Shown piece by piece: positions 23,491 to 64,000 of a stretch of DNA of 64,000 nt; the stretch's first letter is position 1, and each line of letters opens with the position of its first letter. The stretch lies in NCBI GenBank assembly GCA_030280995.1, contig JASXTE010000011.1, positions 17,316,603-17,380,602 of the forward strand, given 5' to 3'. Source of the DNA: Hemileia vastatrix (lineage: Eukaryota; Basidiomycota; Pucciniomycetes; Pucciniales; Zaghouaniaceae). The notes beneath the pieces are model-generated. The model was not told the origin of the DNA. It was given only the letters and a program-made list of their open reading frames with translations, and ran no database searches. Position numbers and translations under genes: made by a program.

Positions 23491-24544
23491 CTAATAAAAT
23501 AGTTATTCACAATATAAACTCACAAGACTTGAATTTTTATGCATGCTAGTGGTGAAAAATAGATAAATAAAATATAGTTGTAGTTATATAAAGACAATAT
23601 CAATTTATAAATGCTTTAGAGTATATTTATATATGATAATAACTGTTTTATAATGTTTAATTGAATTGTAGTAAGTAAGTGATGTCCAATAACCCATCAA
23701 ATCCTCCCTTACTTACACTGAAATCCACTGGAGTGCACAGACCTTCAATCCAGATGATGTCACTTCTATCCCTGGCAATTAAAGCACTGTGAGGGCCCAT
23801 CACCTCCCCATGACTTCCACTTAAAGCAGTTTAAACACCCAGACCTCCAGTAAGAAGCCTCCATCATAATTAATGATACCACAGACCCATACCATAAATA
23901 GAATAAACAGATAAAAGTGGATACCATAAAGAAACAGGTAAAATAACTCATCCAAAGAGTATAAAATGAAACCCAAAGTACGTAGAAGAGCCAAATTAAC
24001 TGTCAAAGCCCTCAATAACATCCCCAAGCATCCATATTAACCCAGTAATGATATCCCAACCCATAAATCCGTGAAAATCCATCAAAGGAAGCAGATTAAG
24101 TTGTCCAACCTGGATATATGTGCCTGAAAATGGTGTATATGCTTGTGTAGGCGTTTTGAGTCCACTGAATACATCCATATAACCTAAAATAAGCAGAAAA
24201 ATAAAGGTTATAGGCTAATAAGAGGTTAAAAACCACTTATAGACCTAAATATACATAATATAACTACATATTTCACTGAATATGAAGTTTATGTATACAT
24301 ATAAGCTTATCTATTTGTATAATTACTTAATATCACTTAAGATAAGTATATTATGACTCCATTAACATCTTAATATGTACTATTAGGCTATGGATAATCT
24401 ACTTAAACTACTATAAGTCATATAATAGTGTAATAATTATATATATATGTATTATAAACATATATATAAATATTATTAGCTTAATGTAATTAAGGTTATC
24501 TTATTTTAAACATAATAATTACTCAGTCCTGGGGATACCCAGTC
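23491..24544. other. Unassigned DNA
   Basis: Minus-strand frames (for example LFYLWYGSVVSLIMMEASYW near 23890) are short and resemble nothing I recognise. 24240-24520 is very AT-rich with TATATA runs. Confidence 0.35.
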
Positions 24545-24975
24545 TGACACTTTCTTTACAGAGGGATAAGAGGGCACATAGCTTGGAGGAGATGAAATTC
24601 AAGATAAAGAATGAGGAGAAGGCTCTTGAGTACAATTTCCTATGAGAGCAGCTGAAAATCAAGTATCAACTTGAAGATGGTTCAGAAAAAGAAGTTTTCT
24701 TGAAATTATTTGTTAAAGCTAATAAATCTGTTCAGGAAATCAAATGCTTAATGAAAATTTTTGAAGATTAGTTTTTTATTTCATTGATGATTCATTCTAA
24801 ATTTTTTTAGAAAGTTTTCTTGATAGAATTTGTTAAAGCTAATATTTCTGTTGAGGAAATTGACTGCTTAATTGAAAAATTTTTATGACTAGTTTTTTTA
24901 TTTCATTCATATTTCATTCCAAATTTTTTTCAAGTCAAAAAAATTTCACATCTTATTTAAAAATATGGCAATACC
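24545..24975 (+). pseudogene. Fragment of a Harbinger Myb/SANT-type ORF (coiled-coil tail)
   Basis: The translation contains MKFKIKNEEKALEYNFL, KEVFLKLFVKANKSVQEIKC and a stop near 24771. This matches the C-terminal coiled coil of the ORF at 37505-38908 (KDFLIECVKANKSVDEIERL). The last ~80 nt are duplicated at 24811-24892. The 3' flank with GGCAATACCCCCCTCC matches the downstream minisatellite of that transposon. Upstream domains are missing. Confidence 0.6.
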
Positions 24976-25119
24976 CCCCTCCCCATGCAATTTAATCTGT
25001 GAGAAGGTAAGGATTACCAAATTTTCATTAAAATTTTATAAATAATTAAGTAAATTAATTAAAAAATATAATCAACCAAGTGAAGGAGTTTCAAATACTA
25101 TCTTCCAATGATTTCATGA

Positions 25120-25932: not shown

Positions 25933-25942
25933 GATGCCTGGG

Positions 25943-25950: not shown

Positions 25951-26030
25951 TGTGAGCTCCTTTGAGTGTGAGACATACTTTCCCACACTACTCTCTCTCC
26001 CTCTTGCTTTTAATTCTTTTATACTTTATT

Positions 26031-31415: not shown

Positions 31416-31429
31416 AAGTAAACTATCTA

Positions 31430-32617: not shown

Positions 32618-32689
32618 TTAAAGAATTTAAAACACCTGAAAAGGGACGTAGTAGTGCAAAGATTGAGATTACAAAGAATTAAATTATAC

Positions 32690-33502: not shown

Positions 33503-33759
33503 AATGAGCAAAGTCAAAGAAAACATATCACAAGAATGGTATTATGAACTCATTCATAAAATATAATTTGATGAGCACCTTTATATGGTACAGGGGCTCT
33601 GTGGTATAATACTTAAAGTTGATTTATTATCTTTAATAAATGATAAATTAAAAATTTATGAAAAAAATAAAAATTTGAAAATCCTTTAATTACTATATTT
33701 AGGGCCCCTCCATAATGTTTTACTAAAAATTGACCCTTTATGCCTTTTTTTACTCACCT
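33503..33759. other. Unassigned AT-rich DNA
   Basis: No gene seen. Confidence 0.35.
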
Positions 33760-34009
33760 CACTATGCAATATAGGGGGTGGACTTTCTAGAAAGTTCTCA
33801 ACCTGAACTCAGATGGAACTCAGACTGAACTCATACTGAACCCATACTGAACTCTACTTGAACACCAACCTAAAACTGTTCTGCTGAGTGGTGATCATCA
33901 CTGATTTTATGGTTCCTTTATCAATAGCTCAATGTGAGTTCAATCTGTGGTGAGTTTGGGTCCAAGTTTGCGGACTTGATAGCAAGTCCACCCCCCATAT
34001 TATGTGGTT
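33760..34009 (+). mobile_element. CACTA-type MITE, copy 1
   Basis: The 250-nt element starts CACTATGCAATATAGGGGG and ends CCCCCCATATTATGTGGTT. The target duplication is CCT (33757-33759 and 34010-34012). It shares its body with copies at 50216 and 53231, including a run of degenerate GAACTCAGA(C/T)TG motifs. Confidence 0.85.
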
Positions 34010-35345
34010 CCTGGTTTATCAAACTTTGATTGATCTGGAATGAAAATCCAAAATGAGTGAACTTTTTGAAAAATTTAAATCCAGTGTGACATTATAAAGT
34101 CTATTATGGAACTAAATTTTATTAAAAAGGGATTTATGGAGATGATTATTGAGATTGGAAAGCCAATCTAATTTTATTATGGTAAATATAAAAGAAATGA
34201 GTATATAAAAGGGTATTTTACAAGTCAAGATTAAACAAATAATCGATGGTCAGAAAATGCAAGTAGAAGTCTGAATGTGCATGAAAAATTAAAGTAAGGA
34301 GTCTCATGAACCTTTTAAAAATTTTATGGAATTTTTACTAATTTTTCACTATTTCTAATAATTTTATAAAGTATTATTGATTATTTTTGATTTTTCATGA
34401 TTTACTTAACTTTGATAATTTTTTACTAAATAATAAGGGCTGTGCAGACTACAAAAATTAGTTATTATTATAAAGGATAAGTATTTCTATCATGTGTAGT
34501 GTTTTTGAATTTTCTATTAGTATTTTAAGGTTCTAATTGAGTCTGGAAGTCTGTATAAGCTCCAGAATGCTCCAGACAAGCTCTGTATGAACTTTGGTAA
34601 TCTCTGGACAAGCCCCAGGATGTTTCAGATGGGGAAAATAGGGAATGTGACATACTATGCATATAAAGCTTTTAGAATGAAATTAAGAAATGTGGGAACA
34701 AAATACAAACATCTTAATTAACAACTTGTATCTTAAGAGTTACATATAACAACAACATTCATTATTATTTTATATAACAAATTATAAAATTGTAATACCC
34801 TTATAGAAATAACACTTTTGAACAACATATTGTAAATTTCACTCAACAACTCATTAATATATACATATAGGGTACCATTTTGAAGGTCTCATCATCAGGG
34901 ATATAAATTTAACAACTAAATCTAATGAAAAAATAAAAGCTTCATAAAAACATATAATTCAATCATTTAAATAACTTTTCTGAATACAGCTTCATTGTTG
35001 TATTTCTTTCCTTCTTTATAAAGAACAGTGATTCAACATATCAAAACCATAAATAAAAAATAGTTTATCATTAATTTTATATCAATTAGAGGTTTAAGCT
35101 TAGTCAATTTTGAACTCTATATTTAGTTAAAATGACAGGATTTTCTTTGGTTTATCCAACTCCCTTGGATTATGCTTACAGCATGGCAACTATAAGAGTC
35201 TTTCTACATTGGTGGCACTCAATGTGGTGTTTGAATTCTCTAGTATTTAATTGATCCTACTTGGTATCTGGACTTGCTTAGCCTGCAAGAGGCTTATCAA
35301 ACAAACCCTTATCATATTTTAACAGTTTTATTATATAATTTTGAG
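34010..35345 (+). repeat. Probable decayed 5' LTR region of a Ty3 element
   Basis: No gene seen. ATGCATATAAAGC near 34657 is TATA-like, and TTCTACATTGGTGGCACTCA (35202-35221) has the form of an LTR end followed by a TGG-type primer site, just upstream of the gag at 35346. The left LTR boundary cannot be set. Confidence 0.4.
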
Positions 35346-36188: not shown

Positions 36189-37040
36189 TGTGGGGGTAAC
36201 TGATGAGCTGGCTGCTCTGTAGAGCAGTTACCCCAGAATGTGTGTTTCAAGTCTTTTGTTTTTCCTAGTTGATTTCTAGTTCTGTTTTTGTCATTCAGGT
36301 TTTTAGTCCTCTATGACTTTAAACTGGCCCAGACTGGTCCTTAATCTTTGGTTTCTTTTGAATGGTGGTGGAACACTGGTGGACTCCCATCATTTTTACT
36401 TATTGCAGGGAGCCTACCAAGTGATATTTTCTTTGGGACTGGACTTTACCTTGGATTTCTCTTATTTTTTATGTTATTTTTTTTGGATGTGGTTTTAGAT
36501 AATTTTCTTTTTTTCCCTTTTTTTCTCATAACTTTTTTATGGGAGTTTATTAGATAAAAAGGTGGAAAATTAGAAAAATTAAAATTAAATGGTGTTACCA
36601 CATCAGGGTCACCTGGATGTGGGAAAGCATTGGTATGGAAAGGCTTAATAATTGGCTGGAATATTCTATTTTTCTCTTTAATTATTATTTATCAGTTTCT
36701 TTTATTTGTTTTTTCATAGATTTATTCTTCATTTTCTGCATCATTTATATTTTTTTTCAGTTCAAAATTATTCAAAAATTATTTAAAGGTATATCCACAT
36801 CAAGGTTCTCTTGGATTTGGGTAAGGTATCAGGGAATCAGCTCATCAATTGGCTGGGGGATACCATTTGTAATTATTATTTATTTCATTTCATTACTTTT
36901 CATTTTATTTTGCTCAGCTCTCATATTTTTTTGGGTATTATGGTTTTAATTATTTCCAAGTTTTTTTTTAGTTTTTTTAGTTTTTTTAGTATGTTAGTAG
37001 TTATAGGTAATATCTGTAAAAATAAAAATAAAAATAATGT
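36189..37040 (+). repeat. 3' LTR, GTGGGGGTAACTG family
   Basis: It begins TGTGGGGGTAACTGATGAGC after GACAAG, exactly as at 46546. Its first 45 nt fold into a hairpin (GGGGTAACTG with CAGTTACCCC, containing CTGCTC/GAGCAG). Two related blocks (ATCAGGGTCACCTGGATG near 36603, ATCAAGGTTCTCTTGGAT near 36797) lie further in. The right boundary is uncertain. Confidence 0.5.
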
Positions 37041-37043
37041 CAG

Positions 37044-37226
37044 ATAAGAGGTGAACATTGACACGTAAAGTGTCTAATAACCCAATTATTAGGGGGTATT
37101 AATGTTGACCAATCTGAAATTAAATTAATTGCAGAAAATAATCAGCATACCCCAATTATCTTCTGCAATTATTTTTGCTAATAATTGGTTTATTAGACAC
37201 TTTACGTGTCAATGTTCACCTCTTAT
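37044..37226. repeat. 48-nt-arm inverted repeat around the Harbinger left end
   Basis: Arms 37044-37091 and 37179-37226 are inverted copies with a single mismatch. They bracket 87 nt that begin GGGGGTATTAATGTTGACC. In the copy at 61940 only the inner arm is present, so the outer arm here was added by an inverted duplication or by nesting. Confidence 0.85.
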
Positions 37227-37504
37227 CCCAAATTTTTTTACTCAATTTTTCATAACCACATCTTGGACAACTTTCTGTCATAACCACATCTTGGACTACT
37301 CTCTAGATATGCCTTCTACCTTTCTGTGCACTCCTACTCTCATCCCATCCTGTTCATTCTATCCGCTCAGAACCCCTCACCATCTCATCTGTTTGTTTCT
37401 GCTCCTTTTCATCTCGCTATCTCATATGCTTGTTTCTGCTCCTTTTCATCTCTCTATCTCATCTGCTTGTTTCTGCTCCTTTTCATCCTCATTTATATTT
37501 TAAC

Positions 37505-38908
37505 ATGCATCGTTGTCCTAGATCTTCTCAAAGGCATCCATCACACAGTTGTTCTTCAAATCCCACTACTCCCTCTTTCCCCCACTCAGCTGAGAAATAT
37601 AAGACTGTTCAATTAAAAAAAGATGATCATCTCATTCTTATCAACTGGCTGAAAACCAAATAAAACTATGATTCTTGTTTTGGTACTGAGTATGCAAACA
37701 AATTAGGACACCCCCCAGCATCAAAAGTTAATGTCTATCTACTAATGGCAAATGAATTACGGAATAAGGCCAAGGGAAGGATTGATATTTTGCCTAAAAA
37801 GATGTCTGAACGCTTCAAGCATTACCAAGCCAAATAAAAGAAGGCAATGGCTCTTTCATCTTCTACTGGTTTTGGGGCTACCAACATTGATATAACTAAG
37901 GGTATAAAATCCATAGACAATAAACTTGAATCTTTATTTCCTTACTTTAAAGAGATGGATGCAATTTTTGGAGAGAGAGCCAATGTTAATCATGTAAACA
38001 TGTTGGATGGAGAAGATCCTATCTCCAAACATGATGTTGAAGCAAATCTTTTCCCATCCTCTTCCTCCACTCAAGCATCCCCTCATTTGAATGAGACAAA
38101 TCTAGATAGCTTTTCTGTAGATCCCATTGGTGATTTAACCCAAACAAATCTAACTCAGGTCTGTTTCTTTTTTCTTTTATCTTATCAATTCTATTTTTTA
38201 TTTACTTATCTTTTTCTTATTTCTTAAAAGGCTGACGAAAAAACCCAGGATCCTCAATCAACTGAGTCTGAAGGTAGTGACAATGATGAGGAGGAAAATA
38301 TGACCTTGAACAAGAAGCGTAAGGCTTCAACTAGTCTAAATTTCCACTCCCAAAGAAGCAAAAAAAGTGATACTTCATCACAAACCCCTTTTTTGTCTAT
38401 GGAACAATTTTTATAGAAACGTGATTCTGGTAAGTGATACCATACCTCTTATTACTTTACTCTGCTTTTCTTCTACTTTATATTAATTTTTGTTATCACT
38501 CTAGAGCAAGTGGAAATTTCTAAAGAAACTCTAAGCTTTGAAAAGAAGAAACATGGGCTCTCTTTAAGGAGGGATGATAGGCTACAAGATTTGGAAGAGA
38601 GGAAGTACAAGCTCTCTTTATGGAAGGAGTATCGGGCCCAAGATTTGGAGGAGAGGAAGAACGAGCTCTCTTTAGGGAAGGATGATTGGGCCCAAGATTT
38701 GGAGGAGAAGAAGTTTGAGTTAACTCTAAGTATTGAAAAATCAAAAAAAGAGGAGAAAACACTCAAACATCAAAACCTATTAGAGCAGATGAAATCTAAG
38801 TTTGATCATGAAGAAAATTCCAAAAAGAAAGATTTCTTGATAGAATGTGTTAAAGCTAATAAATCTGTTGATGAAATTGAACGTTTAAAGAAATTGTTGG
38901 ATGACTAG
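37505..38908 (+). pseudogene. Harbinger Myb/SANT-like DNA-binding ORF
   Basis: ATG 37505 begins MHRCPRSSQRHPSHSCSS. A Myb/SANT-like region follows (KKDDHLILINWLKTK, then PPASKVNVYLLMANELRNKA and LPKKMSERFKHYQAK), interrupted by TAA at 37661-37663 and another before 37847. The next part includes TKGIKSIDNKLESLFPYFKE. Introns at 38159-38230 and 38430-38504 have good borders and are conserved in the copy at 62379. The last exon is a charged coiled coil with a repeated block (EERKYKLSLWKEYRAQDL, EERKNELSLGKDDWAQDL) to TAG 38906. In this superfamily the protein helps bring the transposase to the ends. Two to three stops make this copy nonfunctional. Confidence 0.75.
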
Positions 38909-39059
38909 TTTGTTTTATTTCTCTCACACTTCAACTGTTCATATTTATTTGTACATAAAATTTACAATAATTTCATGTATTTCATTACTCTATCAATCAT
39001 TACTTGAATTTTTGTATTTTAATGTTAAATATTCTTTTTTTAAATAAAATTTTCATGTC

Positions 39060-39415
39060 TCCTTTGAAAATTTGACGATCCCCAACCCCTGGATTTTTTT
39101 GAAGTAATGGGTGGGTATCACCAAAATTCTTTCATGTCATGAATCTTGAAAGTCTTATATGAAACTTTGGCTTTACTAACCCTTGCATTTTACCAGTATC
39201 CCCAAAATTCTTACATGTCAAGAGTTTCACAAGTCTTACAAGAAATTTTGGCAATATCTCCCCTGGATTTTATTGAAGTAAGGGACAGGTATCACCAAAA
39301 ATTATTTACCAAAATATTTACAAGTCAAAAAATTTACATGTTACATATGAAAATTTGGCAATACCCCCCCCCCCTGCATTTTATTGAAGTAAGGGGTGGA
39401 AGTCATCTGAATTTA
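39060..39415 (+). repeat. ~80-nt minisatellite downstream of the Myb-like ORF
   Basis: About four degenerate copies of a unit containing GAAAATTTGGCAATACCCCC, TGCATTTTATTGAAGTAAGG and GGTATCACCAAAATTC. The same unit follows other copies of this ORF (24960, 63860) and occurs inverted at 53495-53560, so it belongs to the transposon family. Confidence 0.7.
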
Positions 39416-39699
39416 ATATAATTACATAAATTATTAATTAAATATATAATATTTATCAATTTCCCTATTTTAAAGTAATGACAATTCCTCAAGCCAAAAT
39501 GCAGATCAAATCTAGAAACAAAAGTTTGGGACTTTCCACAGGTATAGGCTAGAGGAACCCCATGAAAAAAATAAATGTTATCATGATTACCTGTTATACA
39601 ACCAAAGGTTGTTGGCTCATCACTTTAGTTGAGAAAATTGATATATAAAAAATATTTATTAAAAATTTATGAAAAAATATAAAATTTTAGATGAAAACT

Positions 39700-40924
39700 T
39701 TAATCCCCATACTTTTTGGATCTAGATAAAGTTTTTTTAAATTTATTAACTTTACCTTCTTTCTTTACCTTGTTGATTCTTTGAATCAACTTATGACTGA
39801 TTTGAAATGAGCAACCAAAATGTGTGAAATCTTGACAGGATTCCAAACCAGGAGGAGCTTTGTTTGTTTGATGATTATCCTGAGAAGAATTCCAAATAGT
39901 TTTGATGATACCATTTCCCAAACCAAAATAAATGATTCACCAGTGGTCTGGAAAATACAAAACATGTCCTTTGATTTTAGCTGGAGATGGTATTGGTTGG
40001 CCAGTTATTGGATTGTTATAAGAGAAAATACCAAAAGTAAGAAAATTGGCATCATTCTTATCAATATGAATCCTATTGTGGAGTTCATAATGAGTAATAA
40101 TAACATTAAAAAATAAAAGATATTTGTGGGTGATATCTTCCCATTTGGAGTCACACCAATTTGGTATTCCAACATTGGTTTCAAGTTCATGATTTTTTTC
40201 AAATGCTATATTACAGAGCTTTTTGAGTCAAAGAGCAAGAAAAGAGTTAAAGGAAGGTAGAGTGTCCCATAAGTGAAAATCTTCATCTTTTTGATCTTTA
40301 GTGATATTCTTGAGCAATGAATATATGCCTATATAATTGAAATTAGTGAAATGATATTAAGAATGGAACAAAAATTATTATACATACCAAGAGAATATCC
40401 TTTAAAAAAACCTGGTCTCCAACCAAATCCAATCATGATAACACCCAACAAGTTTGTATTCCTTATAGGTAATCAAACCAAAGCCATTTGATAAAGAGTT
40501 ATGATAAGATCCGATAGTTGATTAAAAGATTCATCTTTTACACCATCAAATGAATGAACTTCCAAAATGATTTTACCCTTATAAGTATTACTGATAACTG
40601 CAACAACTCAATCATCACCAAATTTGGTTAGATATTTGATATCTTCTGGTAATTTTTTTGGATATTGATTTTTTTTATCTACTTTAGTTTTATGAAAAAA
40701 AATGTTTGGGATATGACAAAAAAAACTTTTGCAGAGAATTTTTTTTTTCAGATATCTTTTATTTTGATGAGACTGATTATCTTTAATTTTTTTTGATGAT
40801 TTTGAAGATGATTGTATTGAAGTTAATTTTGAAGAAGATGATAGAGTTGATAAAGATGAAGTTTATAAAGAGGATAAAGATGATGATGAAGAGAATTAAG
40901 GGGTGAATCTGAAGAAGAAGACAT
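39700..40924 (-). pseudogene. TET/JBP-like 2OG-Fe(II) dioxygenase ORF inside the Harbinger element
   Basis: Minus-strand exons 40924-40388 and 40328-39700, joined by a 59-nt intron (GTATGT...ATATAG). The N-terminus is Ser-rich. The body reads EDIKYLTKFGDD, KIILEVHSFDGVKDESFNQL, MIGFGWRPGFFKGYSLG. The catalytic region has HYELHNRIHIDKNDANFLTF (the H-x-D pair at 40068-40060), SYNNPITGQPIPSPAKIKG, IIKTIWNSSQDNHQTNK (second His at 39873) and DFTHFGCSFQISHKLIQRI with a C-terminal Arg. The order H-x-D, His, Arg is that of 2OG-Fe(II) oxygenases. The wording around it matches the TET/JBP-like family expanded in basidiomycetes, thought to oxidise 5-methylcytosine or thymine. Three or more stops (for example LAL*LKK and DHW*II) and an N-terminal frameshift disable it. 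Confidence 0.68.
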
Positions 40925-41399
40925 TTTTTTGATCTGAAAAAAATTTAAAGGTCAAAAAAAAAATTCAACACATTTTTTTTAAAAAAAAACTCACCTAATA
41001 ATATCTTTTAAAATAAAATTTATAGCAAAATCCTTTTAAAAAAATTTTAAAAAAAATTTAAAAAAAAAAAAAATATAAATGTTTTCAGTAAAAATTATTT
41101 CAAAAAAAAATAAAATAAAAAAGAAAACCTGAAGTTTGGTTATAAAAAACCTTCACAGAAAATCCTAACAAAATAATTTAAAAAAAAAATTTAAAAAAAA
41201 ATCAGTAAAAGAAAAATCAAAACAAATAAATTAAAAAAAAATTAATTCAGTAAAATTATCTGGAAGAAAAATTAAAAATTAAAATATAAACCTTTTTTGT
41301 TTTTTAATTTACAGGGAAAGACCTTAACAGAATGTAAAAGATTTTTTTTTTTCTAAAATTCTGCCAAAAAAAAAAATTACAAAAAGCAAATTTTTAGAA

Positions 41400-42085
41400 T
41401 GTTTTTTAGAAAGTAGGTAGCCCCTCTTTAACTCCCATAAAAGTTCCCTTTCCCCCCCCCCTTTATTTCTCTGAAATCCTCTATAAAGTCCCTCCCTCCT
41501 TGCCTCAAAACCCCCCTCAAATCCCCTTCTTGCCTGCCTCAAAATCCCCCTGAAACCCCCCAAACTCCCCCTTTACCCCTCTTTATATGTCCCAAACCCC
41601 CCCCTTTCCCCCCCCTCTTTAGCCGCCTCAAAGGCCCCCCCTTCCACTCCCCTTAAACCACCTTTAGCCCCTCCTCCTTCTTAAAAAACAACCACTAACG
41701 ATAATTTGTTAAGTAAATGAATTGCTACCAATTTGTTTAATTAATGAACAATTGTTACGGATGGTTCGTTAAGAAGGGGCTGGGTAGAGGCAGATTAAGG
41801 GGAGTGGAAGGGTGGGAGGGGACCTAAAAGGGGGGGAAGGGGGGATTTGAGATGGCTAAAGAGAAGAGAAGGGGGGAGGGTTGAGGCACCTAAAGGGAAG
41901 GGGGGTCATGAGGCACCTAAAGAGAGGGGAAGGGGGGGTCATGAGGCACCTAAAGAGGGGGGAAAGGGGGGATTTGGGACAGGTAAAGAGGGTGAAATAA
42001 GGGGGACTTGAGGAAGGTAAATAGAAGGGAGAAGGAGTGACTTGAGGCAGGTAAAGAGAGAGAAAAAAAGGTTAAATGAGGCAGC
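41400..42085. repeat. C-rich and G-rich inverted arms with minisatellite
   Basis: 41405-41690 is C-rich on the plus strand (CCTCTTTAGCCGCCTCAAA, CCCCCCCTTTCC). 41775-42085 is the G-rich counterpart, made of about eight units like TGAGGCACCTAAAGAGAGGG with GGGGGG runs. Together they form a loose inverted repeat around an AT-rich centre. The G runs could form quadruplexes. Confidence 0.7.
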
Positions 42086-42530
42086 TAAAGAGGGTGAAGG
42101 AGAGAAAAACAAACAAAAAAAGAGAAAAAAGAGAAAAAAAAATTAGTCTAACCTTGAAAATAAAAAAAAACAAAAAAACAACAAAAACAACAAAAAAAAA
42201 CAAAAAAAAGCAAAATAAAAAAATTCATGATTAGCAAATAAAAAACAAGAAAAAAAAAGACTTATCTGGTGAGATGAGTTGAGAAAATAAAATTAACTAA
42301 AATATTTGAGTGATGTTGAGGAGAGGATGAAAAGGATATGAGTGATGAATGAAAAAAATAAGTGAAAAAATATGTGATTTCATGTTGAGTTGGGGAAAGA
42401 AAACCAATGAGCCATCAAAAAAAAAGATATTCACTGTAAATTCCAAAAAAAATTAATATGCAACAAACCAAAATACCAAACCAAGTGAATAAATTACACA
42501 AAGAGGACATTTGGAGAGTACAAAAAAAAT

Positions 42531-43753
42531 TTAAAATAGTGGTGAAGAGAGATTTTGGAGAGTAATAGGCATAATGACAGAGCGTATGCTGGTTGAATGA
42601 ATGTTTTGTGATTCAAGGGAGGGGAGAGCCTGTGCTGGTTCAGGATCCTCTTCTTCATAAAGATCATTCCACTCATCCTTTAAATCAGCTAGGATATTGT
42701 GAATTATAATGCAAGTCATGATCCAATGATTTGCAGTTTTGATCTCCTATTTTTTATGAAATTAGATGCTGAGCTCCAGAAGACTAGAAAATTGTCCCTT
42801 TAAAATACCTATAGCATGTTCAATTTGTACTCTTGATTGGGCAAGGTGATAATTAAAGGCATTTTTGGGGTCACTTTCTAAAATTGCACCACAGAAAGCA
42901 GGTATAATGTACTTTCCATATGCATATGTTGAGTCTTCAAGGAGGTACTGAGATTCATCAAAGATGAGTCAGGGGTTTGAGAAATCCTCATTCTTTGGAA
43001 GACAGAAGAGTCATGACATGAGCCAGGGCAGCCACTATGAAAAGCAATAAATTTTTTATTGAAATCGCATACAAGTTGAATGGCAATAGAGTATCTAGAA
43101 AGAAGATAAAAAGTTAGTTTATGAAGGATGAGAAATTGGAGAAGATTTTGAAGAAACCTTTTTGTGCGATCAAAATAATGATTGCCATCATGAGCAGGCT
43201 TTTGACTCAAAGGTATAGTTGTGCCATCAACAAATCCTACACAGCCAGGGAAAACTTCAGCTTGCATTACTTGAGAAGATTTAAGTTGCTGTTCTGGAGT
43301 TGGCCAAGAAAGTGTTTGAGACTTTAGGGAAAGGATAGAAATCATACAGCACTTGGTGTATAATATCACGGTACCATATCCTATGTTAAAGAGATTATTC
43401 AAACGTCTTACAGCAGCACGGTTTCCATTTGAGCCAAAGCAACATAGTGCAACAGCAAGTTGGATGGCAGGATTATGCTGTTTGTTATGGGAACTGTTAT
43501 GAAAGATAGGATGATTGGAGATGAGTTGATAAAGTTTGAAGAAAGAATTGGGAGAAGTTCTAAAAATTTGGGTGAAGTTTAAATGAGGAATGTTGAGAAT
43601 GGAGGCCAGATCATATCGGGGATCATGATAAAGATTTGGCCCCCTGGTGATGATGTAACACTTTTTGGAAAGAAAATACATATAAGCTAAAGCATCTTCC
43701 AAATCAGAGTCAGATTTATAGTAAAGAACTAAAAGAAAATTAATAGCATTCAT
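42531..43753 (-). pseudogene. PIF/Harbinger DDE transposase
   Basis: The N-terminal part reads FHNSSHNKQHNPAIQLAVAL, FGSNGNRAAVRRLNNLFNIG. The catalytic core has CVGFVDGTTIPLSQKPAHDG (first Asp), an intron at 43157-43095 and then YSIAIQLVCDFNKKFIAFHS, GCPGSCHDSSVFQRM. A frameshift near 42950 moves the frame; the rest continues as SRVQIEHAIGILKG-like sequence (with Glu) and then CIIIHNILADLKDEWNDLYE, ending near 42531. The motifs GFVDGT, PGSCHDS and IGILKG with a small-helix C-terminus define the superfamily. The enzyme would cut and rejoin the element ends. This copy is broken by the frameshift and at least one stop. A better-preserved core with DSAY is at 56845-57841. Confidence 0.88.
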
Positions 43754-44055
43754 TGTTGAGTGAAGTAGCTTCTAGTAGAGAGGTGTTTCATTGTTGCCGG
43801 TGGAAGGGTTATGTGATGAGGGAAGTGGGAATTCACTGCCAAATGTGCAGTTCGGGTGTGTATATAGAAAAAAAACTTAAATGTTTGCCACCAAAATTAA
43901 GTATCATAGAGTGAGGAAATACTTAAGGATGGAATCAGTAATTATGAGTCATGTGACTTTCTTGCAAATCCATCATGGATGAGATGAGTTTGGGATCAGG
44001 AATTAGGAGTTGAAATTGGGGTATAAGAGGCAGGATAATGCATTATTGTGGATTC

Positions 44056-44087
44056 CTTATCCACTAGCCCCGGGGCTAGTGGATAAG
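44056..44087. repeat. 32-bp perfect palindrome near the Harbinger right end
   Basis: CTTATCCACTAGCCCC is followed at once by its reverse complement. One base-skip further out the match continues (GATTC/GAATC). It lies about 85 nt inside the inner terminal repeat. Confidence 0.95.
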
Positions 44088-44164
44088 AATCTTCCGCAAT
44101 TAATAATGTCTGATCCTGGGAAAAAAAATTCCTGTTTCCTAATTGCGGATCCCTAAACATTGAT

Positions 44165-44263
44165 ACCCCCTATTAGCAAAAATAATTGCAGAAGATAATT
44201 GGGGTATGCAGATTATTTTCCGCAATTAATTTAATTGCAGATTGGTCAACATTGATACCCCCT
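44165..44263 (-). repeat. Harbinger right terminal repeat, doubled
   Basis: CATTGATACCCCCT occurs at about 44158-44171 and again at 44250-44263, so the terminus is present twice in direct orientation with 92 nt between ends. The inner copy resembles the end at 61940 (TCAATGTT(T/C)AGGGATC); the outer resembles the left end at 37091. Confidence 0.75.
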
Positions 44264-44433
44264 AATAATAATATTAAAAAAATTAAAATTAAAATTAAAA
44301 ATAAAAATATTTTTTTAAATTGCTATTTATTAATTTTTTTCTTTCTTTATCAATTTTTTATTTTATTTTGTTTTCTGTTTTCAATAACTTAATTTTGGGA
44401 ATAAGAAGCTTCTGGAGTTTGATTAGGATTGTG

Positions 44434-46150
44434 TTAACATTTTTGTTTTTTGTTGGGATTGTGGCATGCACTGTGTTCTTTAAAGTGTAGTCTGCTGTAA
44501 AGATGGTAGGGATTGTAGTGGTCTGAAACTGGTTCTGAATGCAGCTCAATAGAAGAAGCAGAAGAGGCTGGAAAGGAACGCTGAAAGGTGTGCTTAATGA
44601 TTCTGGGCAACATCCAGTGGTCATCCAGAAGTAGCTCTCTCAGTGTCTTCTCAAATTCATTCAAGGGTCTATGAAGAGAAAAACCTTTTAGCATGTTTGA
44701 AAACATGATTCTTAGGTTTTGTTTCATGTCTAACTAATCCAAGGTTAAAGTAGGTTCAAGAGGTTGAGCAACCTCAACATTGTCTTCAGGAGGAGGAGTG
44801 TCATCTAAACAATAAGCATTTTTGTTCAGAAGTTGTTTTTCTGTTGATGAAATTGGATTATTTACTATGTTACTTACAGATTGGAGATTTTTCAAAAGTG
44901 TAAGCCATTGGGATATGGACTCCTGAAGGATTTAGAAGGTTTGTAGTTGGTGGATCAGCCAGATATGAATAAGGGTTGTCTTGATCCTCTTCCATAGAGT
45001 GTTGAGAAGGTGAACTAGGATGGGACTGTTCCTGAAGCCTAGTTGAAGAAAAATAAGTGCTATTGGTGTTGTTGCTGTTGTTGTTGCTGTTGGTGTTGTT
45101 GGTGTTGTTGGTGTTGTTGGTGTTGTTGGTGTTGTTGGTGTTGTTGGTGTTGTTGGTGTTGTTGGTGTTGTTGGTGTTGTTGGTGTTGTTGGTGTTGTTG
45201 GTGTTGTTGGTGTTGTTGGTGTTGTTGGTGTTGTTGGTGTTGTTGGTGTTGTTGGTGTTGTTGGTGTTGTTGGTGTTGTTGGTGGTTTTGTCTTTGTTGT
45301 TTTTCATACCCTTCTCAGTTGGGTTGGTGTCTGGTGCAGGAGAACCAGAGTTGTTATATGAAAGAGCAGGAGAAGGAGATTTGGGGGCTGATAGTTGCTT
45401 TTTAGATGAAGTTCTTGAGGAGAAGGAACTGTCAGAAGAGTAATTGGCAGGTAGAGGTGAGGTGTAGCAACTTTTTCTAGATGGAGAAGGTGGTTTGGGA
45501 ACTGTGACTGTATTTGAAGCTCTGGTCATTTCTTGGGAAGTTCTGTAAGGTCTTCTGGCAGGTTGAAAGGTGTGGGCAGTGTTGTAACTTAAAAATTTGG
45601 ACTGCATTGCTCTGGGAGCACTAGAAGGTGGTTGGTTAGTAGTGTTGATAAAAGAAGAAGGAATTTGGTTGATTTCTGGTGATATTAGGGAGCTTTCTGC
45701 CTGATTTTTACTTCTGAGAAAGGTGGGTGGGCCACTTGGATGCAATCTAAGAGCCTAGGATTTAATTTGGAGGAATTTGAAGGTAGATTTTCAGAGAGGA
45801 AAGAAGAATCTTGAGAGGATAAAGCTGTTCTTTCAGAATGGTCTCTGGGGAATGATCTTCTAGAGTTTTTAGAAGGAGAAGAAGAGAGAGAAGAAGAGGC
45901 TGGGCCCAATTCTAGAGATCTGATAGGAGATCTAAAAATGTATTTATGAGAAGGTGAAGGTGAAGGAATGGAATAATTGGGATTTCTTTCGCATCTTTTT
46001 TTCTTAGAGTTGCAGTACTCACAAGCTCTTTTGTATAATTTGGCCTCAGGGGCTGGTAAGGTGAAAGTGCAGGGTCTGCACATATGAATGCATTTCTTTC
46101 AGGCATAGTCATTAGGAGCAGTGAAACAAGGAAGATTGGAAGGTTCAAAT
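44434..46150 (-). pseudogene. Low-complexity protein gene with Cys-cluster N-terminus
   Basis: Minus-strand frames join into one gene-like series. The 5' part (46150-45685) has MCRPCTFTLPAPEAKLY and then ACEYCNSKKKRCERN, a C-x2-C-x6-C half cluster. It continues Ser/Pro-rich, shifts frame near 45720, and reads on (45745-44870) through SPSPALSYNNSGSPAPD and a long Asn-Asn-Thr repeat (a 9-bp tandem at 45060-45290). A last exon-like frame (44727-44434) has RPLNEFEKTLRELLLDDHWM. Stops lie upstream of the cluster. Function is unknown. The Cys spacing resembles the zinc-cluster ORFs at 26031 and 55690, but overall similarity is not evident. Confidence 0.4.
45065..45288. repeat. 9-bp tandem repeat (GTTGTTGGT)n
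   Basis: About 24 nearly perfect copies; on the minus strand they encode Asn-Asn-Thr. Every frame on both strands stays open, which explains the spurious Cys-Cys-Trp and Leu-Leu-Val frames. Confidence 0.95.
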
Positions 46151-52574: not shown

Positions 52575-52837
52575 TCACTTATTCAGGAACACCCTCAACC
52601 TTCAGCATAGGCTTTCTGGTAAGATTTTAATTTGGAGCTGATTTGGTTTTACATTGTTTTTTTTTGATTTTTTTGCAGAAATTTCAAATTAAAATATGTA
52701 CTTTCAATTGAATTTAGAAACAACTTTTTGGTGGAAAATTTTATAAGGTTATTTATTTTAAATTATGAGAGTTTTTTTTAAGCTTTAAATTATTTTTGAG
52801 GTTTTTTTGACCAGTAAAATTTTTTTTTAGAAAAAAA

Positions 52838-53035
52838 ATGCCTGCTTCTTCTGATTCAAGCCTTACAACTCCATCTTCATCTTTATCTTCCTTTTCATCT
52901 TTTGGAATTCTTCTCACAATAATCACCAAACAAGGAAAGAGACTCAGGGTTTTCAGTCTTGTCAAGAATTTACACATTTCAGGTGCTCATTTCAGATCAG
53001 TAAAAAGTTAATCCACAGAATAAAAAAGGTAAAAA
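52838..53035 (+). pseudogene. TET/JBP-like ORF, internally deleted copy
   Basis: The frame starts MPASSDSSLTTPSSSLSSFS, like the Ser-rich start at 40924. It then reads, one frame over, WNSSHNNHQTRKETQGFQSC and EFTHFRCSFQISKKLIHRI, matching the C-terminal His and Arg region of 39700-40924. The whole middle, including H-x-D, is missing. It lies in the same opposite orientation to its neighbouring Myb-like relic (53560-54340) as in the complete element. Confidence 0.6.
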
Positions 53036-53230
53036 AATAAGTTGAAAGTATTAATTTTAATAAAACATTAGGTAGATCAAAAAAGTATGGGGTTTTGTAA
53101 AGTCATCAAATATTTATTATTATTTGATTAAATATTTAATAAATAAATCTGATATTTCTATTTACAGTAATGGGCCAATGACCTTGTGTTTTATAATCAG
53201 TAATCATGAGTTGTAAAAATTTTGGTGATA
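53036..53230. other. AT-rich transposon remnant
   Basis: No gene seen; left flank of the third MITE. Confidence 0.35.
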
Positions 53231-53491
53231 CACTACGCAATATAGGGGGTGGACTTGCTAGCAAGTCCTCAACCTGAACTCAGATGGAACTCAGATGGAA
53301 CTCAGACTGAACTCAGACTGAACCCATACTGAACTCTACTTGAACACCCACCTAAAACTGTTCTGCTGAGTGGTGTTCATCCCTGATTGTATGGTTCCTT
53401 TATCAATAGCTCAATGTGTGTTCAATCTATGGTGAGTTTGGGTCCAAGGTTGCGGACTTGCTAGCAAGTCCGCCCCCCATATTGTGTGGTG
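53231..53491 (+). mobile_element. CACTA-type MITE, copy 3
   Basis: The 261-nt element is flanked by ATA (53228-53230 and 53492-53494). It starts CACTACGCAATATAGGGGG and ends with the inverted CACCACACAATATGGGGGG. It is close to an exact reverse of copy 2 and is inserted into the Harbinger-associated minisatellite. Confidence 0.88.
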
Positions 53492-53559
53492 ATACCCACA
53501 CCTTACCTCAATAAAATTCAGGAGAGTGTATTTCCAAATTTTTTCAAGTTCATTGCTGT

Positions 53560-54798
53560 TGAGGCTTGATGCTTTAGTTTGGAGTTTGAGCTAGAGGGTT
53601 CAGGAAGTTCATCTAAAGCAGCTTCCAAAGAAAGATTTTCATTGTCAGAATTGTTATTATTTTTTTAAAAAATTTGAGTTTGAGAAGGAGGAGACTAGAA
53701 AGCAAGGAATGAGAAATTTAGCATAGAATTTTTTAAAAAATAAATAAGTAAATAAGAATTAAATAATTGGGGCTCTGAGGACTCAGATCTGCTTCAAAAT
53801 AATTTTTCTTCTTGGTAGTCAGGATCATCTTCAGTTGAACTATGGTTAAAAACAGGAGGGGATTGATGTCCTTGAAATACAGGTGTGTTGGGAGGATTAT
53901 TAAATGATTGAGAATCAGAGAGTATATCCTTAGTAGTATTGTGTAGAAAACAAGGGTTGAAATCAACCTGCAAACCAAAAAGAATATCCATTTTCTCATT
54001 GAAAGGTTACATGACATTGAGCTTTTCAGAAACAGTAGTAGTTAAATTCTCCAAATAATAATCATCAATACCAAAGCTAGTTGATTTGGAAGCAAAATGA
54101 GCCTTTTCATATTTAGATCAATAACTTTTGAACCTCTACTTCATTTTCTCAGGATTGATGTTGATTCTACCTTTTGTTTTCTTTTTTTACTTCATTTGCT
54201 ATCAACAAGCAATTGACCTTTGATGAAGGTGGGTGTCCAACTTTGGTGGACTTCTCACATCCAAAACATGCATCATAATTTTATTTAATTTTGAGGAACT
54301 TAATGATGATGGGATAATCTTCTTTTTTTAGCTGTTCAGACTTTGGTTTCTAATGTGAGGGGCTTGCATTACAGGAAGACCTTTGTGATGTAGCATTTTT
54401 TTGAGTTGCCTTTGAGTGTTGGATTTTCATGAAGGAATTATGAAACAGGTATGTTACAAGAAAAGAGATTAAGAGGTTTAAAACATAAAAAAAAGGAAAA
54501 AAATGCCTGTTTAAAACGTTGCAATAAAATGTTTCAAATCTCAGTGAGTGTGTGTGTGCCAAGGATTGATGAGGGGATGGAGGTGAGGGTGTCACATATG
54601 ACAGCAATGGGGTGGGAAAGGAAGGCATAATGTGTCCAACATGTGGTTATGAAAAAAAATTTGGAAAAAAGCAATGATTTGATGTCATACCTGATACACA
54701 TTTTTGAAATAAGTAGCTTTTTTGAAAAATTTAAGTGCTGATTTGGTTTGAAATCCAATTTGAAGTTGAGTTCTGATTTGCCCAAGCTGACACCCCCC
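53560..54798 (-). pseudogene. Diverged Harbinger end with Myb/SANT-like ORF
   Basis: A terminal-type sequence, GCTGACACCCCCC, ends at 54798. Reading inward on the minus strand, translations include KGRINI, MKRFKSY-like sequence, SKYEKAHFASKSTSFGIDDY, then KMDILFGLQVDFNPCFL and SPPVFNHSSTEDDPDYQEEK. These parallel SKYKKAKALSSLTSFGVTDI and EMDAIFGEQADVNP of the copies at 37505 and 62379. Stops are frequent. This is a separate, more diverged subfamily sharing its end sequence with 58089. Confidence 0.5.
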
Positions 54799-54804
54799 AT
54801 TAAA

Positions 54805-54968
54805 ATAGTTTGTAATTACTCTAGGAAAATTCAATAAAAAACAAGAACTCCCCCTGTTAATGAATAATGTGATAGCTTTACCCATTTCGGGTGCTCATTT
54901 CAGATAAATGAAGAGTTAATAAATCATGTACGCAAGGTAAAACAGGAATTTTATGTTAAATAAAAATA
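54805..54968 (+). pseudogene. TET/JBP-like C-terminal fragment
   Basis: One frame reads FTHFGCSFQINEELINHVRK and VKQEFYVK to a stop. A related upstream piece (KTRTPPVNE) matches QTNKAPPGLE of the copy at 39700-40924. Only the final ~50 residues remain, abutting the Harbinger end at 54798. Confidence 0.5.
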
Positions 54969-56640: not shown

Positions 56641-56844
56641 TCCCACTGTGCTACAGTGATTGGAAGAATTTTTTCCTTTATTCCAGTGGTTTGAGAAGTA
56701 GAAGTGTTGGATATAGTGGGAGGTGGTTTAACTTCTTTATCTTCATACAGCCCAAAAAATTAATCGTTGAGGTCAGCCAGTAGGTTATGAAGTATAGTGC
56801 AACTCAGAAACCAGTTGATCACTTCCTCCATTTCTGATTTATTT

Positions 56845-57841
56845 CTAAGAGGACTTATTAATTCTTTTAAAATAGAAAAAACAACCTTTCAAGATTCCAA
56901 TAGATTTTTCAATATGGACTCTTGACTTTTCCAAACAATTTTTGAACTTGGCTTTTTTCCTGTCTTCTAAAGCTGCTCCCTGAAAAGCAGGAAGTACATA
57001 CTTTCTATTCACATAAGCAGAATCTGCCAGAAGACACTGATCTTTATCTAAGAATTTTCCTGGTTTATTTGAATTTTGAATTTTTTTGAAGATGTAGAAG
57101 TCTTGACATGATCCAGGATAGCCAACAAAGAAAAAAATAAGTTTTTTGTTGATTTCTCTTATCAGCTGAACGTAAATTGAATATCTATAGAGAAGAGATA
57201 GTTGCTTGTGTTGGTAAGAAAAAGAATGAATGGAATCAAAAAATAAGCTACCTCTTGTTTCCACCTTGAGCAGGTTTCTGACTCAAAGGAATAGTAGTAC
57301 CATCAAGAAAACAAATACATCCTGGGAAAACTTCTGCTTTCATAACCTGAGATAATTCAAGTTGCTCTTCTTTTGTTGGTGGGGTAAGAAGCTGAGATTC
57401 CAAGGAGTTGATAGCAGTGATGCATTTTTTTGTATAAGAGTTAAAAGAACCATGCCTTAAATCAAAGACATTTTACAAATGTTTCAAGACAGCTCCATTA
57501 CCATTGGAACCCAAACAACATAGCGTGATGGCCAATTGAATTAAAGGATCATGTTGTTGTTTTTGAGAATTATTGTGAAAGATAAGGTGGTCCTGAATAA
57601 ACTTAAGCAATTTAAGGAAACATTCCTGAGAAGTCCTGAAAAGCTGTCTAAAACTGGGTACAGATAGGTTAAGAAGGGTTTGAATGATGTACTTGAGGCT
57701 TTCTTGGAAGAAGATAATGTTTTCTGGCCATTTTTGTCTAAAAACAAAGTCTTCTTGAAGATCAGAGTCCAAGAGGAGATCAAGAGCTATGAAAGTCATT
57801 GCTTGATGTAGCTTATCATGATTTGAGAGTGAGGAAGACAT
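56845..57841 (-). pseudogene. Second Harbinger DDE transposase
   Basis: ATG 57841 starts MSSSLSNHDKLHQAMTFIAL. FHNNSQKQQHDPLIQLAITL and LGSNGNGAVLKHL parallel the transposase at 42531-43753. A TAA follows, then FPGCICFLDGTTIPLSQKPA (first Asp), an intron (about 57257-57185) and YSIYVQLIREINKKLIFFFV, GYPGSCQDFYIFKK. The second Asp lies in CLLADSAYVNRKYVLPAF and the Glu in SRVHIEKSIGILKG. All three catalytic positions can be seen, which is better than in the other copy. PGSCHDS has changed to PGSCQDF. The element end ACTGACACCCCCT at 58089 lies about 250 nt upstream. Confidence 0.82.
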
Positions 57842-58438
57842 ATAAAATGATGTACAATGTTTTTTGAGTTATGAAGTGTTATGCTGCGGAGTGCTGTGTA
57901 TGAATGGGATGATGCTGACAAATCAGTGAAATGGGACTTGATGGTGAAATCAGCACTTTTGGTTGAGAAAGTGCAGATTTGAGTGAACTAAGTGACTTAT
58001 TTCATTTTGAAATCCACCAGTGTTGGGGCTAGTATGTTTTGGGAATCCACACTGAAATAAGTGCTGATTTGCTAGAACTGACACCCCCTAATATTGTTAT
58101 TTTTAAAATGAGCCGCTGTAATGTTTAACTCCTTCAAGAACCCAGCAGCATGTAAGTATTAACAATGTTTGCTTTGTGCAGTTTTGATCACTATAGAATA
58201 TTTTATTCATATATAACCCAACAATTTCTTGCATCTGAATCATGCTATTCGGGTTATGGTCTCTCATAAATGATGTTTTATTTATCTTTTCAAAAGGCAA
58301 AGACATCAGAAGCGTCAAAGGCAGCACAATCCATAGGAATTATGCACCAGGCCCCAGCCGCGTCATCACTCTCGATCAAGTTGCATTAGTCGGGACGTAT
58401 TCCTTCTCTTCATCTGCCATATTGTATCGTCAATAATA
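57842..58438. promoter_or_regulatory. Harbinger end and PRE2 upstream region
   Basis: The transposon terminus GAACTGACACCCCCT ends at 58089. The 349 nt from there to the PRE2 ATG must hold its promoter and leader. No canonical TATA is obvious. Confidence 0.5.
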
Positions 58439-61939: not shown

Positions 61940-62378
61940 AGGGGGTATCAATGTTCAGGGATCAGCAATTAAATTAATTGCGGATAAAAATCCTTATACC
62001 CCAATTATTTTCCGCAATTATTTTTGATAATAATTGGGTTATTAGACACTTTACGTGTCAATGTTCACCTCTTATACGACATTTTTTTACTCAATTTTTC
62101 ATAACCACATCTTGGACAACCTTCTGTCATAACCACATCTTGACCTACTTTCTGCCATAACCACTTCTTGAACTACTCTCTGCATATGCCTTCTACCTTG
62201 CTGCGCACTCCCATTCTCATTGCATCCTGTTCATTCTATCCGCTCAGAACCCCTCACCATCTCATCTGCTTGCTTCTGCTCCTTTTCATCTTGCTATCTC
62301 ATACGCTTGTTTCTGCTCCTTTTCATCTCTCTATCTCATCTGCTTGTTTCTGCTCCTTTCATCTTCATTTATAATAAT

Positions 62379-63729
62379 ATGCCTCGTCATCCTAGATCTT
62401 CTCAAAGGCAGCCATCACCCAGTTGTTCTTCAAATCCCACTACTCCCTCTTTCCCCCGCTCAGCCGAGAAATCTAAGACCATTCAATTAAAAAAAGATGA
62501 TCATCTCATTCTTATCAACTGGCTGAAAACCAAATCTAACTATGATTCTTGATTTGGTACTGAGTATTCAACTAAAGTAGGATGGCCCCCAGCATCAAAA
62601 GTTAATGGCTATCTTTTAATGGCAAATGAATTACGGAATAAGACCAAGGGAAGGATTGATCTTTTGCCTAAACAGATGTCTGAACGCTTCAAGCATTACT
62701 GATCCAAATACAAGAAGGCAAAGGCTCTTTCATCTTTGACGAGTTTTGGGGTTACTGACATTGATATAACTAAGGGTATCAAATCCATAGAGGATAAACT
62801 TGATTCTTTATGTCCTTACTTTAAAGAGATGGATGCAATTTTTGGAGAGCAAGCCGATGTTAATCCTGTTAACATGTTGGATGGAGAAGATCCTATCTCC
62901 AAACATGATGTTGAAGCAAATCTTTTCCCATCCTCTTCCTCCACTCAAGCCTCCCCTCATTTGAATGAGACATAGCTAGATAGCTTTTCTGTAGATCCTA
63001 TAGGTGATTTAACCCAACCAAATCTAACTCAGGTCTGTTTCTTTTTTCTTTTATCTTATCTTTTCTATTTTTTATTTACTTATCTTTTTCTTATTTCTTA
63101 AAAGGCTGATGAACAAACCCAGGATCCTCAATCAACTGAGTCTGAAGCTAGTGACAATGATGAGGAGGAAAATGCTACGTTGAACAAAAAGCGAAGGGCT
63201 TCAAATAGTCTAAATTTCCTCTCCCAAAGAAGACCAAAAAGTGATACTTCATCACAAACACCTTTTTCTTCAATGGAACAGTTTTTAGAGAAACATGATG
63301 CTGGTAAGTGATATCATACCTCTTATTACTTTACTCTTCTTTTCTTCTACTTTATGTTAATTTTTATTCTCACTCTAGAACAAGTGGAAATTGCTAAAGA
63401 GACTCTAAGCTTTGAAAAGAAGAAATACGAGCTCTCTTTAAGGAGGGATGACAGAGTACAAGATTTGGAAGAGAGGAAGTACAAGCTCTCCTTACGGAAG
63501 GATGATTGGGTCCAAGATTTGGAGGAGAAGACGTTTTAGTTAACTCTTAGTATTAAAAAATCCAAAAAAGAGGAAAAAAACACTCGAGCATCAAAACTTA
63601 ATGGAACAGATGAAGTATAAGCATGATCTTCAAGAAAGTTCTAAAAAGAAAGATTTCTTGATCAAATGCATTAAAGCAAACAAATCTGTTGAAGAAATAG
63701 AACATTTAATGAAATTTTTTGTTGACTAG
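62379..63729 (+). pseudogene. Myb/SANT-like ORF of the second Harbinger copy
   Basis: ATG 62379 begins MPRHPRSSQRQPSPSCSS. The region KKDDHLILINWLKTKSNYDS then meets a TGA; GWPPASKVNGYLLMANELRN, LPKQMSERFKHY and a TGA follow; a TAG interrupts near 62975. Both introns of the first copy are conserved (63034-63104 and 63304-63378). The coiled-coil exon has EERKYKLSLRKDDWVQDLEE, a TAG at 63537-63539, and ends near 63729. It has one repeat block fewer than the first copy. Where the first copy has a stop after WLKTK, this one does not, so the two decayed independently. Confidence 0.78.
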
Positions 63730-64000
63730 TTTCTTTTATTTCTTTCACACTTCATGTGTTCATATTTATTTGTACATAAATTTTACAATTATTTTCTGTA
63801 TTTCTTGAAATTTTGTATATTAATGTTAAATATTCTTTTTTTAAATAAAATTTTCAAGTCTCCTTTGAAAATTTGACAATCTCCCACCCCTGGATTTTTT
63901 TGAAGTAAGGGGTGGGTATCACAAAAATTCTTTCATGTCATGAATCTTGAAAGTCTTATATGAAAATTTGGCTTTACTACCCCCTGCATTTTACCGGTAT
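63730..64000 (+). repeat. Minisatellite downstream of the Myb-like ORF (start)
   Basis: GAAAATTTGACAATCTCCCA and GAAGTAAGGGGTGGGTATCA match the ~80-nt unit at 39060-39415. The array runs off the window. Confidence 0.65.

What the first reader, a model, noticed from the sequence alone, without database searches (positions are those of the whole stretch)
37091..44263. Harbinger-type transposon carrying a TET/JBP-like DNA-base oxygenase
Seen: between matching inverted ends lie a Myb/SANT-like ORF, a DDE transposase and, between them, an ORF with H-x-D, His, HFGCSFQI and Arg motifs interrupted by an in-phase intron. Known: basidiomycete TET/JBP-like genes are expanded, and the association I am aware of is with KDZ-class transposons. 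Inference: in this fungus the oxygenase has been taken up by a PIF/Harbinger element, where it could oxidise methylated bases to counter silencing of the element. Two more fragments (52838 and 54805) beside Harbinger relics suggest a stable association, not a chance insertion.
Basis: partly seen in the sequence, partly recalled or inferred. Interest (0 to 1): 0.88.

Follow-up and report, generated by a model that had tools for sequence, protein, structure and literature searches.

The report
Rust-fungus transposon with TET-like oxygenase
A family of cut-and-paste transposons, apparently in a rust fungus, carries its own TET-like DNA-oxidising enzyme, probably to undo the methylation that silences it; this kind of element was described in print in December 2025, and here it is found in a genome whose copies are only distantly like the proteins found in databases.

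Summary
The core observation holds, with corrections. A TIR element lies at 37092-44170 (not 44263), flanked by TA. It encodes a weakly Myb/SANT-like protein (+), a PF20515 Tet-like 2OG-Fe(II) oxygenase (-) and a PF13359 Harbinger transposase (-). The window copy is broken in all three genes. The repeat at 44171-44264 is the remnant of an older copy into which this one jumped. In the host genome (747.6 Mb), 14 of 14 complete long copies examined carry sequence of all three genes in this order, and 13 of 14 have TA on both sides. A second family (L030) has the same three genes with open frames. Changes shared by several copies spare the oxygenase's amino acids (ratio 0.39, p 0.0006), while single-copy changes are neutral (0.96), so the enzyme was under selection while the element was active. 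CpG sites in the copies are depleted and hypermutable, as expected of methylation. However, the youngest copies seen (two opened, 2.56 kb) keep the transposase only, so the oxygenase is not needed in cis. Kojima (Dec 2025, PMC12730594) already describes TET+ Harbinger elements (PHISTA, TA target sites) in six Pucciniales. This is a new member of a known kind; its anti-silencing role is still inferred.

The parts
37092..44170 (.). Element E1 (7079 bp), family A, broken copy; ends GGGGGTATTAATG...CATTGATACCCCC
   Evidence: other copies share both ends; TA at 37090-37091 and 44171-44172
37090..37091 (.). TA target-site duplication, left
44171..44172 (.). TA target-site duplication, right
37505..38908 (+). 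Third-protein gene (weakly Myb/SANT-like N-terminal part, charged probably coiled-coil C-terminal part), at least three exons judged by eye, interrupted by stops in this copy
   Evidence: homologous open frames in other copies match PF13837 weakly
39700..40924 (-). TET-like 2OG-Fe(II) oxygenase gene (PF20515), with a probable short intron; in-frame stops and a frame break in this copy
   Evidence: HxD and distal His seen
42531..43771 (-). DDE (PF13359) Harbinger-type transposase gene, frame broken in this copy
37031..37091 (-). Left part of an older reverse-oriented copy into which E1 inserted
44173..44264 (-).
61941..64000 (+). Element E2, family A, cut by the window edge; it continues in L029 with oxygenase and DDE and ends at L029:4527
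52749..54802 (-). Relic E3 of family B (L030 type), inverted: oxygenase remnant, third ORF, left end
56656..58094 (+). Relic E4 of family B: DDE (- strand) and right end
54799..54948 (+). Oxygenase C-terminal scrap next to the end of E3, apparently outside it
   Evidence: tblastn E 6e-12
34011..34082 (-). Oxygenase scrap beyond a Gypsy insertion (tentative)
   Evidence: tblastn E 0.001
24493..24994 (+). Third-ORF relic and adjoining spacer on the near side of the Gypsy insertion (tentatively one element with 34011-34082)

Best explanation
The feature is a degenerate copy of a TA-targeting PIF/Harbinger-related DNA transposon of the kind named PHISTA. Its unit is: end - third protein (+) - TET-like oxygenase (-) - DDE transposase (-) - end. 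Shown: the anatomy, the TA target sites, that oxygenase and transposase sequences travel together in complete long copies and in two families, and a signature of past purifying selection on the oxygenase. Inferred: the DDE protein cuts and pastes at TA, the third protein binds the element's DNA, and the oxygenase oxidises 5-methylcytosine on element DNA. That oxidation would relieve silencing and slow CpG-to-TpG decay. Because oxygenase-free derivatives also spread, the effect can be shared in trans. I put the identity at about 0.93 and the anti-silencing function at about 0.5.
For: PF20515 match of an untouched window piece; PF20515 in open frames of L030 and L031 and PF13359 in L030. 14 of 14 complete long copies carry third, oxygenase and DDE sequence in one order, and 13 of 14 have TA on both sides. 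Family B (L030) has the same order with open frames. 4 of 4 loci that I picked from the PF20515 list have the third ORF beside the oxygenase, and 3 of 4 also DDE. HxD is kept in 12 of 14 copies and the distal His in 14 of 14. Shared changes in the oxygenase: 33 non-synonymous to 24 synonymous against 44.5:12.5 expected, ratio 0.39, p 6e-4; one-copy changes: 133:35, ratio 0.96. This holds without CpG sites and is absent in the sense frame-shift controls. CpG: among columns with at most one deviating copy, 15 of 23 CpG columns show a C>T or G>A change against 171 of 1530 other C/G columns. CpG observed/expected is 0.15-0.41 in the 14 copies against 0.63 in the proteasome gene. In A. psidii, TEs are reported as hypermethylated at CpG (PMC12774611, passages).
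Against: No methylation or enzyme data for this host were seen. L035 and L036 (99.95% alike over 1822 bases) carry the DDE but no oxygenase, and 71 of the 150 listed DDE hits, these two included, share one score; whether the other 69 lack it too was not tested. Two 457-458-bp copies carry no genes. L009 has the third gene but no oxygenase or DDE match in its stretch. So the oxygenase is not needed in cis. CpG observed/expected is much the same in a carrier (L030, 0.41) and a non-carrier (L036, 0.42), and the whole window stands at 0.30, so CpG depletion is not special to these elements. One antisense control frame also gives low ratios (0.56 and 0.62). The substrate may not be 5mC. The copies read were chosen by likeness to E1's left end, and 20 of the 39 other listed copies were read. 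In 2 of the 14 copies (L022, L025) only the first part of the DDE is left.
Confidence: 0.8

Rival explanations
1. The oxygenase is a passenger (captured gene) with no role in the element's life.
For: Oxygenase-free copies exist and are young; this window copy is broken.
Against: Selection signature on changes shared between copies, at least as strong as in the third protein and the transposase (ratios 0.39, 0.44, 0.60); kept in two diverged families and in 14 of 14 complete long copies.
Confidence: 0.12
2. The oxygenase belongs to its own nested element that happens to sit inside this copy.
For: The window is full of nested insertions.
Against: Same order and orientation in 14 of 14 complete long copies and in a second family with other ends; flanking spacer also homologous.
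Confidence: 0.02
3. The oxygenase acts on another substrate or makes another product (hypermodified base as in CMD1 or JBP, or 6mA), marking or protecting element DNA and not demethylating it.
For: The enzyme is far from characterised ones: no solved structure matched the L030 oxygenase by sequence and no database protein scored E <= 0.001 for two queries; Kojima leaves this open for PU-type enzymes.
Against: HxD and distal His largely kept; CpG decay pattern points to 5mC as a relevant mark.
Confidence: 0.25
4. A host-serving role: the many oxygenase copies act as a host demethylation system.
For: At least 150 close copies in the genome (a capped list out of 8592 first-look candidates).
Against: The copies opened lie in mobile elements, many in decay; changes within single copies are neutral.
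Confidence: 0.05

Closest known systems
PHISTA, TET+ Harbinger of rusts (Kojima 2025, PMC12730594)
   Same: Harbinger-type DDE transposase, TA target sites, TET/JBP-like oxygenase, a third protein, rust hosts
   Different: Named relatives of the transposase are only 43-57% identical in Puccinia and 38-51% in A. psidii MF-1; the third protein shows a weak Myb/SANT-like match, whereas Kojima reports none
Nuwa and canonical PIF/Harbinger elements
   Same: DDE transposase plus a second, DNA-binding-type protein
   Different: 3-bp target sites, two proteins, no oxygenase (from PMC12730594)
TET+ KDZ elements (Kyakuja, Dileera, Zisupton)
   Same: DNA transposons carrying a TET/JBP-like gene
   Different: Other transposase and 7-8 bp target sites (from PMC12730594)
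ESTA, TET+ elements with TA target sites
   Same: TA target sites and PU-type oxygenase
   Different: EnSpm/RAG1-like transposase (from PMC12730594), not PF13359

Membership tests
PHISTA (TET+ Harbinger) | PIF/Harbinger-type DDE transposase | tested here: met
   PF13359 in E1 pieces and in L030 (E 2.5e-25); best named relative is annotated DDE Tnp4 in Puccinia coronata
PHISTA (TET+ Harbinger) | TA dinucleotide target sites | tested here: met
   13 of 14 complete long copies and 2 of 2 short ones have TA on both sides
PHISTA (TET+ Harbinger) | TET/JBP dioxygenase with HxD and distal His | tested here: met
   PF20515; HxD in 12 of 14 copies, distal His in 14 of 14
PHISTA (TET+ Harbinger) | Third protein without Myb/SANT domain | tested here: inconclusive
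   7 of 9 third ORFs match PF13837 at E <= 1, best 0.0016, 19.2 bits against a cut-off of 27; in the PDB only two chance-level hits, E 0.54 and 0.8
PHISTA (TET+ Harbinger) | Transposase groups with Puccinia PHISTA in a tree | not tested
   Kojima's sequences are in a supplement that could not be read here; only a best-hit list
PHISTA (TET+ Harbinger) | Host in Pucciniales | tested here: inconclusive
Canonical PIF/Harbinger | 3-bp target sites | tested here: not met
   TA only
TET/JBP dioxygenases | Oxidation of 5mC or thymine in DNA | not testable with these tools
   Needs an enzyme assay
KDZ-linked TET elements | KDZ transposase in the same element as the oxygenase | tested here: not met
   Harbinger-type DDE in 14 of 14 complete long copies; a KDZ family search of the genome did not complete, so KDZ-linked oxygenases elsewhere in the genome are not excluded

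The most novel reading that the evidence does not exclude
In this host the element-borne oxygenase works as a shared good. Full three-gene copies keep it under selection, while young transposase-only derivatives spread without it, so transposon-encoded base oxidation may shape methylation across much of the genome. In addition, an A-like element (L033) carries an oxygenase only 56-60% like that of E1 although its third and DDE genes are 67-84% like E1's, which hints at oxygenase exchange or long-standing variants within one element lineage.
Probability: 0.25. Interest if true: 0.62.

Novelty: new member of a known kind. Interest (0 to 1): 0.42.

Why it matters
It gives independent support, from many copies in one genome that is apparently an unlisted host, for the recent proposal that rust transposons carry their own TET-like enzymes. 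It adds a selection test (shared against single-copy changes) that I did not see in the sections I read of the paper describing the class. It also adds a counter-observation, oxygenase-free derivatives that have still spread, which makes the cis-or-trans question testable.

Tried and rejected
Nested-element origin of the oxygenase: rejected by 14 of 14 complete long copies. Protein database searches with the oxygenase found nothing at E <= 0.001 (11 candidates; 2261 candidates), so no outside phylogeny of the oxygenase was possible. PDB: no match to the L030 oxygenase; two chance-level hits for the third protein (E 0.54 and 0.8). The KDZ family search of the genome was asked once and not answered. 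The deletion-junction search was asked six times and not answered. The cis-protection prediction by CpG content was looked at with two elements only (0.41 against 0.42) and says nothing firm. dN/dS pooled over pairs (oxygenase pieces 0.41-0.55, third 0.25-0.45, DDE 0.44-0.91) agrees but mixes active life and decay.
Full report
The region 37091-44263 was read and its frames listed.

The true right end is 44170. Three results agree. The left flank 37031-37091 is an inverted copy of sequence just inside another copy's left end. Joining the two flanks of the insertion gives a stretch that aligns with the reverse complement of that copy's left end at 139 of 164 positions, the largest gap being the cut site itself. 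And in the 13 other complete long copies the sequence matching 44090-44170 is followed by TA and then by other flanks. E1 therefore jumped into an older reverse copy, and the outer repeat at 44171-44264 is that older copy's remnant.

Genes. The oxygenase piece 39940-40227(-), searched as it stands, matches PF20515 2OG-FeII_Oxy_6 (Tet-like) at E 1.3e-8, 35.5 bits, cut-off 27. The next piece, 39703-39936(-), has no Pfam match on its own. Two of the transposase pieces match PF13359; the last, 42534-42746(-), does not. A database search with the main transposase piece gave 62 hits at E <= 0.001, the best 48% identical over 90% of the query. By my count 33 of the 62 bear an organism name: 32 are Pucciniales (43-57% identity in Puccinia, 38-51% in A. 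psidii) and one is Podila. Frames are interrupted by stops or frame breaks in all three genes of E1.

Genome. The window lies in an unnamed 747.6-Mb assembly. A search with the left end listed 40 copies, a cap, from 1325 first-look candidates. I read 20 of the 39 other copies, plus the continuation of E2. Of these 20, 12 are complete and long and 2 are complete and short (458 and 457 bp). The other 6 are truncated, nested, rearranged or not closed within the stretch: L011, L012, L021 and L023 contain oxygenase matches, L009 (third gene only) and L019 (no gene match) do not. With E1 and E2 there are 14 complete long copies: 14 of 14 carry third, oxygenase and DDE sequence in one order, and 13 of 14 have TA on both sides. 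In L022 and L025 only the first part of the DDE is left. Most of the 14 have stops somewhere in the pieces compared. The 2 short copies carry no genes.

Selection. Among the 14 copies, changes seen in one copy only are neutral in the oxygenase (133 non-synonymous to 35 synonymous; expected 134:34). Changes shared by two or more copies are constrained (33:24; expected 44.5:12.5; ratio 0.39; p 0.0006; Fisher test single against shared p 0.003). The third gene gives 0.87 and 0.44, the DDE 1.06 and 0.60. The result holds without CpG sites (0.39, p 0.004). Sense frame-shifted controls give ratios of 1.10 or more for shared changes. Among antisense controls one frame gives 0.56 for the oxygenase (p 0.04) and 0.62 for the third gene (p 0.02), but 1.23 for the DDE; third positions coincide with the true frame there, which may be why. 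Shared changes are not independent events, so p values are indicative only.

Methylation traces. Among columns with at most one deviating copy, 15 of 23 CpG columns carry a C>T or G>A change against 171 of 1530 other C or G columns. CpG observed/expected is 0.15-0.41 in the 14 copies, 0.30 in the whole window, 0.40 in the Gypsy element, 0.77 in the Copia element with 99.8% alike LTR parts, 0.63 in the proteasome gene and 0.67 in an unidentified ORF region. So depletion is general, and strongest in old repeats. In the rust A. psidii, transposons are reported as CpG-hypermethylated (PMC12774611, passages seen), and CpG methylation is mapped in P. striiformis (PMC12129025, passages seen). No methylation data for this genome were seen.

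Other families. A PF20515 search of the genome lists 150 hits, a cap, from 10849 first-look candidates, all listed ones over the cut-off, with none in 14 control genomes. A search with the E1 oxygenase piece also lists 150, a cap, at 83% identity or more, 143 of them without a stop in the match by my count. I opened four of the PF20515 hits, chosen by me and not at random. L030 is a complete element of a second family, with TA on both sides and three open genes in the same order. L034 is like it, but no right end was found in the stretch and part of its DDE is missing; L031 has third and oxygenase but no DDE match in the stretch; L033 has all three, its DDE interrupted. Relics at 52749-54802 and 56656-58094 of the window belong to this second family. 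L033 has third and DDE genes 67-84% like E1's but an oxygenase only 56-60% like E1's (34% in the N-terminal piece) and 51-59% like L030's.

Evidence against a simple reading. A PF13359 search lists 150 hits, a cap, from 7944 first-look candidates, and rings in 1 of 14 control genomes; 71 of the 150 share one score (my count). Two of these 71 were opened. L036 is a 2555-bp element with TA on both sides, an open transposase, no oxygenase and a 33-residue stub of the third gene. L035 is its twin, 99.95% over 1822 bases, partly masked. So the youngest copies seen have lost the oxygenase. Whether the other 69 are alike was not tested, as the junction search did not complete. They may use products of full copies in trans, as MITEs do, or may not need the enzyme.

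Third protein. 7 of 9 third ORFs match PF13837 (Myb/SANT-like) at E <= 1, best 0.0016, below the cut-off. Kojima reports no Myb/SANT domain in the third protein of TET+ Harbinger families. This remains open.

Literature. PMC12730594 (Kojima, Dec 2025) was read in its summary, abstract, introduction, methods, results, discussion and figure legends, not its conclusions or supplement. It describes fifteen TET+ Harbinger families with TA target sites (PHISTA) in six Pucciniales species, and proposes escape from silencing. Judged by titles and abstract beginnings, the listings of my searches showed no other paper on this combination (15 of 53 papers listed, none, 1, 2, 6). PMC12210899 was seen in passages only. 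The KDZ link of Iyer et al. is known to me from recall and through Kojima's citation.

Verdict. A new member of a known kind in an apparently unlisted host, well supported as a unit, with an inferred anti-silencing function.

Noticed in passing
L036:346-2900 and L035:1097-2918: Transposase-only 2.56-kb derivative of family B, 99.95% alike between the two; 71 of 150 DDE hits share the same score, suggesting a recent burst without the oxygenase.
   Followed up: partly
L033:3952-4974: A third, diverged oxygenase type (56-60% identity to E1) inside an element whose other genes are like family A.
   Followed up: partly
window 3428-11308: Array of tandem repeats of about 600 bp, 73-77% alike between units.
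   Followed up: no
window 17179-22338: Copia-type element (type judged by eye) with 99.8% identical LTR parts and internal 174-180-bp duplications in the LTRs.
   Followed up: no
window 25120-33506: Gypsy-type element (type judged by eye; LTRs 94.6% alike) that seems to split an older third-ORF/oxygenase relic.
   Followed up: partly
window 33760-34008, 50213-50478, 53230-53491: About 265-bp MITE-like repeat with inverted ends, one copy inside relic E3.
   Followed up: no
window 41420-42100: G/C-rich, strand-asymmetric, partly palindromic spacer between oxygenase and DDE, also present with variation in other copies.
   Followed up: no
window 45050-45300: Long run of Asn-Thr-Asn type codon repeats in an open frame on the - strand.
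   Followed up: no
window 58337-59544: Proteasome subunit gene (PF00227), an ordinary host gene.
   Followed up: no
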